From Treponema sp. (GTDB taxonomy: Bacteria > Spirochaetota > Spirochaetia > Treponematales > Breznakiellaceae), in contig JAITCL010000038.1 of the NCBI GenBank assembly GCA_031283105.1, positions 1-49,734 of the forward strand: 49,734 nt of DNA, in the 5' to 3' direction. How positions within the stretch are numbered: the stretch's first letter is position 1; every line of letters begins with the position of its first letter. Of the stretch, positions 46,286 to 49,734 are shown in pieces. Made by a program: the position numbers and the translations under genes. The notes below the pieces were generated by a model. The model was given only the letters and a program-made list of their open reading frames with translations, did not search any database and was not told the DNA's origin.

Positions 46286-47386
46286 TCAGATAACTGTTTC
46301 TCTTTCGGTATAGTTTTTTGCTATCCATTTCCGGTATTCACCATTTCGGATGCTGTTGATCCAATCAAGATTGCAAAGATACCATTCAACAGTTTTTTCA
46401 AGTCCAGTCTGGAAATCCACCAGTGGTTTCCATCCCAGTTCTTTTTTTATTTGGGAAGAATCAATGGCATAACGGCGGTCATGACCGGGCCGGTCGCATA
46501 CATAAGTAATGGTATTCTTGACCGCTACGGGATCTATCCCCGCTTTTTTCGCGGTAATATCAATAAGCAAATAAAGAAGATTAATATTTTCCCACTCGTT
46601 TTCTCCGCCTATATTGTACTTGCAGCCCCTTTCTCCCCGGATTAATATATCCACTATTGCGCGGCAATGGTCTTCTACGTAAATCCAATCCCGGATATTT
46701 TTACCGTCACCATAAACAGGCAGTGGTTTCCCCTCCAGTATATTCAGGATCATCAGGGGAATCAATTTTTCCGGGAATTGATAAGGGCCATAATTATTGG
46801 AACAGTTTGAAATAGTGACAGGGAGTCTATAAGTATGATTGTAGGCCATAACTAAATGATCGCTTGCCGCCTTGGTGGCAGAATAGGGAGAGCGGGGATC
46901 ATAAGGGGTTGTTTCGGTAAAATAGCCTGTTTCTCCGAGAGAGCCGTACACTTCATCGGTGCTGATATGGTGAAAAAGTACCCCCGTCTCCATAGATGAA
47001 TCACTGATTTTCCAATAATTCCTTGCCGCATCCAGCAAGGTATATGTTCCCATAACATTGGTTTTAATAAAATCTCCGGGCCCCAGAATAGAACGATCTA
47101 CATGGCTTTCGGCGGCGAAATGAACTACCGTGTCAATATCGTATTTATTAAAAAGGTCATGAACCAAAACGGCATCACAAATATCTCCCTTCACAAAGAA
47201 ATAGCGTTTTCCTCCCCATTTTTCTTCAACATCATTCAGGTTCATGAGGTTACCGGCATAATTCAAGGCGTCAATATTTATTATCCTGTAGTTAAAGTTT
47301 GAATCTTTTTCAAAAAGATAGTGTATAAAATTACTGCCAATAAAACCGGCGCCGCCGGTAACAAGAATGTTTTTTAAGGTGCGCAT
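46286..47386 (-). CDS. rfbB: dTDP-glucose 4,6-dehydratase RfbB/RmlB
   Basis: The 366-residue SDR enzyme converts dTDP-glucose to dTDP-4-keto-6-deoxyglucose. It has VTGGAGFIGSNFIHYLFEKD, VVHFAAESHVDRSILGP, HISTDEVYGSLG, YSATKAASDHLVMAY (YxxxK) and IRDWIYVEDHCRAI. Its ATG overlaps the stop of the AbiEii-type fragment by one base (TAATG), an unexpected coupling to a toxin-gene remnant. Confidence 0.96.
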   Translation of the reverse strand: MRTLKNILVTGGAGFIGSNFIHYLFEKDSNFNYRIINIDALNYAGNLMNLNDVEEKWGGKRYFFVKGDICDAVLVHDLFNKYDIDTVVHFAAESHVDRSILGPGDFIKTNVMGTYTLLDAARNYWKISDSSMETGVLFHHISTDEVYGSLGETGYFTETTPYDPRSPYSATKAASDHLVMAYNHTYRLPVTISNCSNNYGPYQFPEKLIPLMILNILEGKPLPVYGDGKNIRDWIYVEDHCRAIVDILIRGERGCKYNIGGENEWENINLLYLLIDITAKKAGIDPVAVKNTITYVCDRPGHDRRYAIDSSQIKKELGWKPLVDFQTGLEKTVEWYLCNLDWINSIRNGEYRKWIAKNYTERETVI

Positions 47387-47796
47387 TAAAAAACTTCTCC
47401 GCTTATCATTGCGTGTACAATCCGGTCAATGTCATTGCGGAATTCTTCCCAAGAAGGTTTCCTTGTCCATGCGACAGTTTCAAATTTGCTTTGGGGCATT
47501 CCATGGAGAATGTCGCAAACAATTGGTATTTCTACACCCGCTTCCTTTTGCCTTGCATCATTAATAGCTTGCTGCCAATCTATTTTTTCATGCAATGCCA
47601 TTTCCCGAATATCAGCCACATCTTTTGCGGCAAAACGGAATAAAGCGGTTAATTTATTGGAAAGCATATTGCGAATTGAATCCGTCCTGACAAATAATTC
47701 TGTTTTAACAATATCTCCAAAATGATACTTTACATCATTTACAAAATCAAGTTTTAGTAAGGTATTTGATTTATCCCAATACACTATGATTTGCAA
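47386..47796 (-). pseudogene. AbiEii-type nucleotidyltransferase, C-terminal fragment
   Basis: The fragment (136 residues from a TTG with no binding site) contains LKLDFVNDVKYHFGDIV and SNKLTALFRFAAKDVADIREMALHEKIDWQQAINDARQKE, matching the second half of the AbiEii/AbiGii toxin family, where a 'K-x-D-F-V' strand is followed by KL-x-AL and KD-x-x-D-I. The N-terminal GG-T-AL and DLD active site is absent here, but it is present in the same orientation at 49300-49677. An in-frame TGA lies about 30 bases upstream of the TTG. I interpret this as the 3' part of a split gene. Confidence 0.75.
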
Positions 47797-48050
47797 GAAA
47801 GCAGGGATTTTCTCCCTTCATAGAAAAAAAATAATGTATTACATTAGCAGTATTAAGATATCTTATCCCTTCATCTGCCAGTATTTGACAATTCCATTCC
47901 CCCGAAAGTTCCAAAATTATATTACCATAGGTGTTGTCGCATTGATGTTTTCAACCATCGTGAACGGGCCTTTTTATTAAAATGACCGTCAATAGTTATA
48001 ATTTTTAGTTCATTAACATGACTGAGTATCTCTTTCCGTTTACCAATCAT
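47771..48050 (-). pseudogene. Decayed coding sequence, family unknown
   Basis: Short frames follow one another on the minus strand. From an ATG at 48050, one reads MIGKRKEILSHVNELKIITI and on to a TAA at 47932-47934. An overlapping frame, open from about 47960 to a TAA at 47771-47773, reads NIILELSGEWNCQILADEGI and more. The residues look protein-like in each frame, as if one gene had been broken by a frameshift. I do not recognise it. Confidence 0.35.
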
Positions 48051-48144
48051 GTCTGCCTCAGTATTATCATCAAAATATTTATCCTAACAGTAACTTAAAG
48101 ATATTTTTTGTTTAGAATTGTATAATAATTATCAGACTTAATTA

Positions 48145-49074
48145 TCATCTTTTATCTGATATGCCGCTTCGTAAAATAGAAATAACTTTCCTTAATTTCA
48201 ATAACATATACCTTATTCTCGGCGCATAGTATCGTCTTCCATCTATAGCGATAATACCATTATAAACATTCATAGTATGCATTCCGGTATTCCATTTTCG
48301 ACTTGTTGGATAAAAACGCTTTAACTCTTTAAATGAAAATTTATTATCTTTGAATAAAACTTCTTGTAATACTAAACCTTTGCCATATTTGCCATTGCAA
48401 TCCTGGGCCGGGCGAATATGCTTATCATTTATATAAAATAGCTCGCCACCATTACGAGCACAATTATCCTCAAAAACGAAAGTATGATCCATTGAATATA
48501 CACCATCTATTTTATTGGAACTGTAAATATTTAGTATATTCTTGTTTTGAATGGGTTTTTTTGTTGAAAGAACGTAAAACTTATTAAAAAAAGTCGTAAT
48601 TATTGCATCTGTCAATGGCTCATTTATTAGCTCAGAAACCATTTCTGCTTTATTTGATTCTTCAAAGTATTTGTATAATAATAGTTTCCCTATATTTGAA
48701 TTTTCAGGATAAATATATATTTCTTGACCAATTCTAAAAATTGCGGGAAATGACAGATGGGATGCTAATTCAAGAACAACATCACATGATAACAGCCGAT
48801 ATTTTTTTCTATCAATGATCAATCTTGAAATCCTTCCTTTTTTAAGCGGTAGATAATACTCTTCTACAAGTAGAATAATCTGTTCGGGGGTTGTACTCAA
48901 AATAAAAGGATCCGCAAACCAGCGATCATTATAAGAATGTTTCATCCATATGGTATTCAAAGTATCAGCTTCAAGAATGTTTTGTATATCAAGGTTAACA
49001 AAACCAATATTCCAAATCTCAGTGTTAGAAATATACTTATCATAAATATATTTTTTTAATTTTGTCGTTTTCAT
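48145..49074 (-). CDS. GINT1/GH43-fold-like sugar-related protein (putative glycosyltransferase-associated)
   Basis: The 309-residue protein starts at the ATG at 49074, with a weak GGTGA about 8 bases upstream; TTG and GTG codons just ahead give a slightly longer frame. Its pattern WNIGFVNLD, then WMKHSYNDRWFADPFIL, LLVEEYYLPLKKGRISRLIID, and HLSFPAIFRIGQEIYIYPENS resembles the beta-propeller domain found beside formyltransferase-type and inositolphosphoceramide glucosaminyltransferase N-terminal proteins (fold related to GH43). Function is unknown. It is AT-rich and stands between the two halves of the AbiEii-type gene. Confidence 0.6.
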   Translation of the reverse strand: MKTTKLKKYIYDKYISNTEIWNIGFVNLDIQNILEADTLNTIWMKHSYNDRWFADPFILSTTPEQIILLVEEYYLPLKKGRISRLIIDRKKYRLLSCDVVLELASHLSFPAIFRIGQEIYIYPENSNIGKLLLYKYFEESNKAEMVSELINEPLTDAIITTFFNKFYVLSTKKPIQNKNILNIYSSNKIDGVYSMDHTFVFEDNCARNGGELFYINDKHIRPAQDCNGKYGKGLVLQEVLFKDNKFSFKELKRFYPTSRKWNTGMHTMNVYNGIIAIDGRRYYAPRIRYMLLKLRKVISILRSGISDKR

Positions 49075-49299
49075 AATAAAAATCACCAATAATAAAGTGG
49101 ATGCTGAATAAACATAAATAACTTCCTATCTATTCTATCCAGATCTGGTATTGACCGATATTAAGTTCCATTTATTCATAAACAACCTATTTCTGGAATA
49201 TCTATTGTTTGTTTCTTCCAACCACTGTTTACAACTCATTATTATTGATATTTTCGATAGTCAGATACACCCGGAAAAGCCGATGGATTACCTATGTAT
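49075..49299. other. AT-rich gap upstream of the GINT1-like gene
   Basis: No gene is supported. It contains the 5' region of the 48145-49074 gene and the probable right junction of the segment inserted into the AbiEii-type gene. On the minus strand a short open frame (about 20 residues) follows the N-terminal piece in a shifted frame. Confidence 0.4.
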
Positions 49300-49458
49300 T
49301 TACAAAAACTCTTCTAATTTTATAAAAACTTCTTTTACCTGAGCCGGATAATCATTATCGTCATTCAAGAAAAAATCAAGATCGTCAGAATAACGATGAC
49401 TATAATAAAGGGTATTATACCGTAGGGCAAAGCCCTGCAAGGAAGTTGCATACGCAAA
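49300..49458 (-). pseudogene. AbiEii-type nucleotidyltransferase, second N-terminal piece
   Basis: In the minus strand, YYSHRYSDDLDFFLNDDNDY continues to a TAA at 49300-49302. HRYSDDLDFF is the nucleotidyltransferase active-site strand (DxD) of this family and normally follows directly after GGTALSRAY, which is found at 49552-49677. The frame is open further into the intervening palindromic element (back to a TAA at 49459-49461), so its first 17 codons are element sequence. Confidence 0.7.
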
Positions 49459-49552
49459 TTACAAATGTTCGGTAAGATATTAAACCCTTCGTTTCCTCAC
49501 TCGCTCAGTCATGTCCGTGCAAGCACGGACGCGACTTCGCTCCGTTCGTCAA
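49402..49552. mobile_element. Small palindromic element inserted in the AbiEii-type gene
   Basis: About 150 bp separates two halves of one conserved motif. The segment has no coding capacity of its own. It contains GTCCGTGC-AA-GCACGGAC (49513-49530) and AGGGC-AAA-GCCCT (49424-49436), and GACTTCGCTCCGTTCGTCA at its right side. Exact ends and target duplication cannot be fixed by eye; it may be a MITE- or REP-type unit. Confidence 0.55.
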
Positions 49553-49677
49553 TATGCCCGGCTGAGCGCCGTTCCACCGGTCAGAAAAAAGCGGACGCCA
49601 CATTTGCTTATAGTGTTCATCACCCCATCTTGCAGGGGGTAAAGGTTCTCTTCGTAATACTGCGAGGGCAAAATCAA
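49549..49677 (-). pseudogene. AbiEii-type nucleotidyltransferase, first N-terminal piece
   Basis: It begins at TTG 49677 with AGGAGG at 49685-49690 and reads MILPSQYYEENLYPLQDGVM, then FFLTGGTALSRAY before a TGA at 49549-49551. LYPLQD and the GGTALSR loop are the N-terminal hallmarks of the family. The downstream half of the motif is at 49300-49407. A frame running through the same DNA from the right edge of the window also exists (see rejected items). Confidence 0.75.
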
Positions 49678-49734
49678 AATGGTACCTCCTGTCTTTTGGC
49701 CAGATACGCTTCGCTATTTCCGGCGTGTATAATT

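What the first reader, a model, noticed from the sequence alone, without database searches (positions are those of the whole stretch)
47386..49677. An AbiEii-type toxin gene split into three pieces by the edge of a glycan locus
The sequence shows three collinear minus-strand pieces of one nucleotidyltransferase: 49549-49677 (GGTALSRAY), 49300-49407 (HRYSDDLDFF) and 47386-47796 (LKLDFVNDV, KL-x-AL, KDVADI). Between the second and third lies about 1.5 kb with a GINT1-like gene and decayed frames. From family knowledge, these motifs lie close together in intact AbiEii proteins. I infer that a 1.5-kb block entered the toxin gene and that the glycan locus grew at this point. It may mark a recombination hotspot for surface-glycan genes.
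Basis: partly seen in the sequence, partly recalled or inferred. Interest (0 to 1): 0.7.

Follow-up and report, generated by a model that had tools for sequence, protein, structure and literature searches.

The report
Toxin gene broken by two insertions
A bacterial toxin gene next to a rhamnose-sugar gene, in what is probably a gut spirochete, has been broken at two places, by a small repeated element and by a 1.5-kb piece of sugar-coat genes; the dead gene itself is ordinary, but in two relatives the toxin and its partner gene sit inside a sugar-synthesis operon.

Summary
The three minus-strand pieces, aligned one by one, fall in order on intact AbiEii-family proteins of relatives (residues 1-42, the next ~33, then ~130 at the C-terminus; ~20 missing). 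The two gaps are separate events. Between pieces 1 and 2 lies a 147-bp dispersed repeat (47 matches in this genome), inserted between catalytic motifs I and II, where the overlapping upstream partner frame would end. Between pieces 2 and 3 lie 1,525 bp (~30% GC) in place of ~60 bp: a GINT1_N-domain gene, matched in no other same-genus genome searched, and fragments of a decayed GT8-like gene. The gene is most likely a pseudogene. 'Edge of a glycan locus' needs correction: in two relatives the partner-toxin pair lies inside the rhamnose operon, rmlA-C-D-[partner-toxin]-rmlB; 16 other genomes examined have rmlD directly before rmlB. The four rml-linked toxins are not one clade, so at least two toxin lineages probably reached this place. 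A hotspot is plausible, not shown: most junctions are empty. Reads to exclude misassembly were not available.

The parts
49549..49677 (-). piece 1: toxin residues 1-42 (TTG start, AGGAGG upstream), catalytic motif I GGTALS; ends at the repeat
   Evidence: motif definition from PMC3985639 passages, placing it here is my reading
49551..49734 (-). 3' part of the upstream partner (antitoxin-like) frame, overlapping the toxin start out of frame; now runs on into the repeat to 49505
   Evidence: ORF 49505-49732; matches over up to 61 aa to partner ORFs of relatives; overlap of 116 or 131 nt, start codon counted, in 17 of 17 relatives with a readable start
49404..49550 (-). 147-bp dispersed repeat (MITE-like) separating motifs I and II; TATT at both junctions
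   Evidence: 47 matches in the own genome, alignment of 25 copies, hairpins
49300..49407 (-). piece 2: next ~33 toxin residues with motif II (HRYSDDLDFF); DNA homology ends at 49304-49310
47779..49303 (-). 1,525-bp low-GC block in place of about 60 bp (59-70 by six alignments) of the toxin gene
48145..49089 (-). GINT1_N-domain gene (PF24793), 314 aa, open
47922..48050 (-). fragment of a decayed GT8-like gene (aligns to residues ~52-95 of ~340-aa proteins; no shuffle control made)
   Evidence: family of the homologues PF01501
47774..47944 (-). second fragment of the GT8-like gene (aligns to residues ~198-257), in another frame; ~100 residues between are missing
47386..47796 (-). piece 3: toxin C-terminal ~130 residues with the motif III/IV region (KLTALFRFAAKDVADI, my reading); DNA homology from 47776-47779; stop overlaps the rmlB start by one base; GGAG before rmlB
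46286..47386 (-). rmlB (dTDP-glucose 4,6-dehydratase homologue); rmlB follows the toxin also in G016 and G001, and the toxin remnant in G023

Best explanation
This is the remnant of an AbiE-like toxin-antitoxin pair that stood directly upstream of rmlB. A 147-bp non-coding repeat inserted at TATT between motifs I and II of the toxin. The partner frame would end there, so it was only extended by ~14 residues while the toxin was cut. In a separate event, in unknown order, a 1.5-kb scrap of glycan genes took the place of ~60 bp between motif II and motifs III/IV. No piece holds all motifs, so no nucleotidyltransferase should be made. The C-terminal piece persists because the break is recent and because its end holds the ribosome-binding site and start of rmlB. 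Shown: homology, order, the two inserts, the layout in relatives. Inferred: loss of function, recency, the role of the 3' end, and that the partner is an antitoxin.
For: Separate mapping of the pieces in order. The repeat occurs at many other places in the genome; the frame runs unbroken through its site in 18 of 19 relatives' loci (in the 19th, G019, the site is not covered) and in the own-genome partial copy on contig C32. The block's GINT1_N gene has no match in the other same-genus genomes among 146 searched, its tail DNA only ~38-bit matches in 38 other genus genomes, and it holds decayed glycan-gene frames. Toxin directly before rmlB in G016 and G001, remnant in G023. Published mutants in each of motifs I-IV of an AbiEii abolished toxicity, one G50A mutant excepted (PMC3985639, passages). 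GGAG and a stop/start overlap at rmlB in the window; the same in G001; similar in G016 and G023.
Against: Piece 3 still shows dN/dS 0.16 against G016, so a residual role cannot be excluded. The contig ends at 49734, so the 5' part of the partner gene is unseen. The assembly has 167 contigs and 7.1% contamination; without reads a chimera at 47779 or 49303 is not excluded. The partner has no known antitoxin profile.
Confidence: 0.85

Rival explanations
1. Assembly artefact: the block or the repeat was stitched in from another strain or a contaminant, and the real gene is whole.
For: Contamination 7.1%, 167 contigs. 8 of 47 repeat matches lie within 60 bases of a contig end (lengths). A second partial copy lies at the end of contig C32, uninterrupted at the repeat site, 94% identical over 127 nt.
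Against: The C32 copy differs in sequence, lies by other genes (ABC exporter, epimerase, ugd) and lacks ~25 codons of its partner gene. The repeat junctions carry the TATT seen at other copies. The tail DNA of the block has no second copy in the own genome; its head was not searched.
Confidence: 0.1
2. Piece 3 is retained as a working short gene, for instance as a leader for rmlB translation.
For: 136 codons still open; dN/dS 0.16 against G016; stop overlaps the rmlB start and GGAG lies in its end; in G023 too only C-terminal parts were found before rmlB.
Against: It lacks motifs I and II. The G023 remnant carries an insert and a frame change. Low dN/dS is also expected if the break is recent.
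Confidence: 0.15
3. The pieces are unrelated fragments or separate conserved genes.
For: Pieces 1 and 3 have no AbiEii profile match alone; against another AbiEii-family protein of the own genome (L001) the pieces score only 28-37 and out of order.
Against: In-order mapping on one intact protein in 17 of 19 relatives' loci, the other two being partly covered; scores far above shuffles.
Confidence: 0.02

Closest known systems
AbiE type IV toxin-antitoxin system, AbiEii/DUF1814 toxin (Pfam PF08843; PMC3985639)
   Same: Two intact relatives tested pass PF08843 (41.4 and 51.7 bits, cut-off 22.5) and match PADLOC AbiEii models; GG...DLD motif present; small upstream partner gene in the same direction.
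   Different: The window copy is broken in three. Three partner ORFs tested have no Pfam match, so the partner is not a recognisable AbiEi. Partner and toxin overlap by 116 or 131 nt out of frame. Some copies lie between rmlD and rmlB.
Bacterial MITEs; IS200-type or REP hairpin elements
   Same: Short, dispersed, no long frame, hairpins; TATT at the left junction in 23 of 25 copies and at the right in 15 of 18 with a full right end; Y1 transposase genes exist in the genome.
   Different: Only 11-12-nt chance-size matches beside the three Y1 genes found, so the mobilising enzyme is unknown and the class is not assigned.
GINT1_N-domain proteins of bacterial glycan loci (PF24793)
   Same: GINT1_N domain, 68.6 bits, cut-off 27.
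   Different: Distant: best-ranked plasmid match 31% identity (8 of 45 records seen); 25-31% in the 14 other matching genomes of 390 in the order.

Membership tests
AbiEii (PF08843), intact relatives | profile match over the gathering score | tested here: met
   L061 41.4 bits and L060 51.7 bits against 22.5; two proteins tested
AbiEii (PF08843), window gene | profile match over the gathering score by a piece alone | tested here: not met
   piece 2 19.1 bits, pieces 1 and 3 none. It is filed here through homology to intact relatives
AbiEii (PF08843), window gene | motifs I-IV in one protein | tested here: not met
   motif I on piece 1, II on piece 2, III/IV region on piece 3; motif definitions from PMC3985639 passages; their placing here is my reading
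AbiE two-gene system | AbiEi-type antitoxin next door | tested here: inconclusive
   a partner ORF lies next door in relatives, but three tested have no Pfam match at E 10 and L068 none in PADLOC or NCBIfam
AbiE two-gene system | toxicity neutralised by the partner | not testable with these tools
   needs expression tests
MITE | short multi-copy element without a gene, with precise junctions | tested here: met
   47 matches; 25 copies aligned; 12 of 39 genus genomes, own included, hold matches
IS200/IS605-type MITE | ends shared with an autonomous Y1 element | tested here: not met
   no ends within ~1.5 kb of the three Y1 genes found in the own genome

The most novel reading that the evidence does not exclude
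The rmlD|rmlB junction of these spirochetes is a recurrent docking site: toxin-antitoxin pairs enter exactly between the two genes, in operon phase, and tie the cell to the rhamnose operon; later they decay through repeats and glycan-gene scraps, while their 3' end stays on as the translation start region of rmlB.
Probability: 0.2. Interest if true: 0.6.

Novelty: new variant of a known kind. Interest (0 to 1): 0.35.

Why it matters
As a pseudogene it is ordinary. The setting matters more: a toxin-antitoxin-like pair in phase inside a dTDP-rhamnose operon, from more than one toxin lineage, with two genes that share 116-131 nt of DNA in different frames. If the pair is active in relatives, losing or swapping the sugar operon would expose the cell to the toxin, which would link surface-glycan variation to addiction modules.

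Tried and rejected
One insertion for both gaps: rejected, since the first gap is a dispersed repeat. RNA gene in the repeat: the only Rfam match in the window at the gathering score is a tRNA elsewhere. Y1 transposase with the same ends: not found beside the three genes. Source of the block among relatives: no close source. No solved structure matches the GINT1_N protein at E up to 1. PHROGs gave nothing for four block frames, NCBIfam nothing over a cut-off for six proteins. Selection on piece 3 was inconclusive. The RmlB tree was too weak to judge one origin (p-AU 0.099). Literature, in the held open-access library only: no paper holds AbiEii, capsular polysaccharide and nucleotidyltransferase together; none holds Treponema, termite and miniature inverted-repeat; the listings (titles and abstract starts only, many hits not listed) showed me no report of such a pair in an rml operon.

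Full report
Setting. The window is a whole contig (C125) of a 2.79-Mb, 167-contig assembly, 94.6% complete, 7.1% contaminated. One relative, G010, has a contig of the same length as the public record JAITFY010000032.1, 'Treponema sp. isolate Pal332_bin4', found by the same protein match; that accession falls in the range JAIRJQ-JAITXW deposited with a termite-gut study (PMC11257099, passages). That the window's host is a gut spirochete is inference.

Observation. The three pieces exist. Each was aligned on its own to 22 loci: 19 from relatives and 3 from the own genome. In 17 of the 19 relatives' loci piece 1 aligns whole (42 residues), piece 2 next to it, piece 3 at the C-terminus; G016 (L032) takes piece 1 only from its residue 13; G019 (L042) holds only the C-terminal part. 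In G014, piece 1 covers residues 13-54 of the open frame, piece 2 54-86, piece 3 108-236. The one-residue overlap of pieces 1 and 2 reflects the TATT on both sides of the repeat. Of the own-genome loci, L003 (contig C32) takes piece 1 and the start of piece 2; L001 and L002, other AbiEii-family genes, give only weak scores, in L001 out of order. Scores on G026 are 220, 139 and 525, against at most 45, 50 and 58 in 1000 shuffles each. Two intact relatives' proteins match PF08843 above the cut-off and PADLOC AbiEii models.

First gap. 49404-49550 is a 147-bp repeat: 47 matches at E <= 0.1 in the own genome, the window's own included, halves counted apart, 40 of 67 candidates scored. In 25 aligned copies the left junction reads TATT in 23. 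A full right end is seen in 18, of which 15 read TATT; 2 copies are short variants and 5 are cut off by contig ends. It folds better than shuffles as single-stranded DNA (z -2.4, 3 of 200 as good). 12 of 39 genus genomes, own included, hold matches, most in the own one (24), G016 (14) and G007 (12). The mobilising enzyme is unknown: three Y1 transposase genes are present, without shared ends.

Overlap. The partner ORF upstream of the toxin continues 116 or 131 nt into it, start codon counted, out of frame, in 17 of 17 relatives with a readable toxin start (19 loci given; G019 lacks the 5' end, G016 was skipped for want of the standard start). Synonymous difference in the overlap is lower than downstream (mean pS 0.446 against 0.663; 66 pairs of 12 genus sequences), but nonsynonymous difference is lower too (0.107 against 0.205). 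Under synonymous recoding the frame stays open that far in 3-14% of trials per sequence. This supports double coding and is not proof. In 10 of the 17 the partner stops at the TATTATAA-like site where the repeat sits in the window, in 7 it stops 15 nt earlier; the window lacks the earlier stop. So the repeat extends the window's partner frame by about 14 residues, to the stop at 49505, while cutting the toxin.

Second gap. DNA homology ends at 49304-49310 and resumes at 47776-47779 in six relatives compared; 59-70 bp of theirs are not matched and 1,525 bp stand in their place. GC of the block parts is 30-31%, against 41% for rmlB and 37% for piece 3; piece 2 itself is 28%, so GC alone does not mark the block. 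GINT1_N gene: 4 of 146 relatives match, own included, none of the others in the genus; 15 of 390 in the order, own included, the others at 25-31% identity. The tail frame 47774-47944 matches 53 of 390 genomes at E <= 0.05, own included. Both tail frames align to separate parts of ~340-aa proteins, of which two of three tested are over the Glyco_transf_8 cut-off. The stretch 49090-49303 remains unassigned.

Locus in relatives. G016 and G001: rmlA-rmlC-rmlD-partner-toxin-rmlB, one direction; G001's contig ends in rmlB. In G016 a frame change puts partner and toxin in one 315-codon frame. G023: only damaged C-terminal parts before rmlB. The RmlC and RmlD proteins of G016 have no match among the window's frames of 70 codons or more. 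Of 35 loci with rmlB examined, 17 loci from 16 genomes have rmlD within 60 bp upstream; 2 hold the pair; 1 (G023) the remnant; 1 (G229) has rmlD 596 bp away with a DUF1016_N-like frame between (23.5 bits, below that cut-off); 2 have rmlA upstream; 12 show none of the reference genes, 5 of them with under 700 bp of upstream sequence. rmlB-like genes are in 77 of 195 family genomes, so most were not examined. Homologues of this toxin are in 44 of 195 family genomes, own included. Most loci examined show no rml gene in the stretch fetched, often only 1.5 kb a side; in G066 the pair lies ~3 kb from an rmlACDB operon, and copies in G031, G073 and on C32 lie within some kilobases of ugd.

Lineages. 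In a tree of 20 C-terminal sequences the four rml-linked copies are not one clade: p-AU 1.9e-5, and one origin in 0% of 200 bootstrap trees. Only 2 of 17 inner branches are well supported, however, and those alone do not force more than one change. The window groups with G016; G001 and G023 lie near G003, G010 and G031. So at least two toxin lineages probably reached the place before rmlB, by insertion or replacement. The RmlB tree (11 rows) does not decide this (p-AU 0.099).

State of the gene. Motif I, motif II and the C-terminal motifs are on different pieces; published mutants in each motif of an AbiEii lost toxicity, a G50A mutant excepted (PMC3985639, passages). Piece 3 against G016: dN/dS 0.16; third positions hold 14 of 22, 9 of 17 or 14 of 28 changes unique to the window, by outgroup. 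So the break is recent or some constraint remains. GGAG and the TAATG stop/start overlap at rmlB lie in piece 3, a plain reason to keep its end.

Noticed in passing
L064:1-360 (G000:C32, contig end): Second partial copy of the pair in the own genome: toxin start 94% identical to piece 1 over 127 nt, uninterrupted at the repeat site; its partner gene lacks ~25 codons, and the toxin runs off the contig.
   Followed up: partly
L001:1501-2163 and L002:1501-2007 (G000:C80, C161): Two other AbiEii-family genes without stops in the own genome (139.7 and 48.9 bits), only distantly like the window gene.
   Followed up: no
L059:12234-13181: In G016 a frame change puts partner ORF and toxin ORF into one 315-codon frame; real or sequencing error not decided.
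   Followed up: no
L080:3343-3782: G023 toxin remnant before rmlB carries a ~15-residue in-frame insert and a later frame change.
   Followed up: partly
L155:951-1424: A DUF1016_N-like frame on the opposite strand between rmlD and rmlB of G229, below the family cut-off.
   Followed up: partly
own-genome contigs C24, C28, C76, C85, C104, C138, C144, C155: 8 of 47 matches of the 147-bp repeat lie within 60 bases of a contig end, so the repeat probably breaks the assembly.
   Followed up: no
L090:7665-8033 and L064:428-865: A small nucleotidyltransferase (PF01909) beside the G031 toxin, and a frame with a sub-threshold HepT-like match beside the C32 copy; possibly further toxin-antitoxin genes near ugd.
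   Followed up: no
window 49090-49303: Low-GC stretch at the head of the block with short frames; no family found for the 34-aa frame 49135-49239.
   Followed up: no
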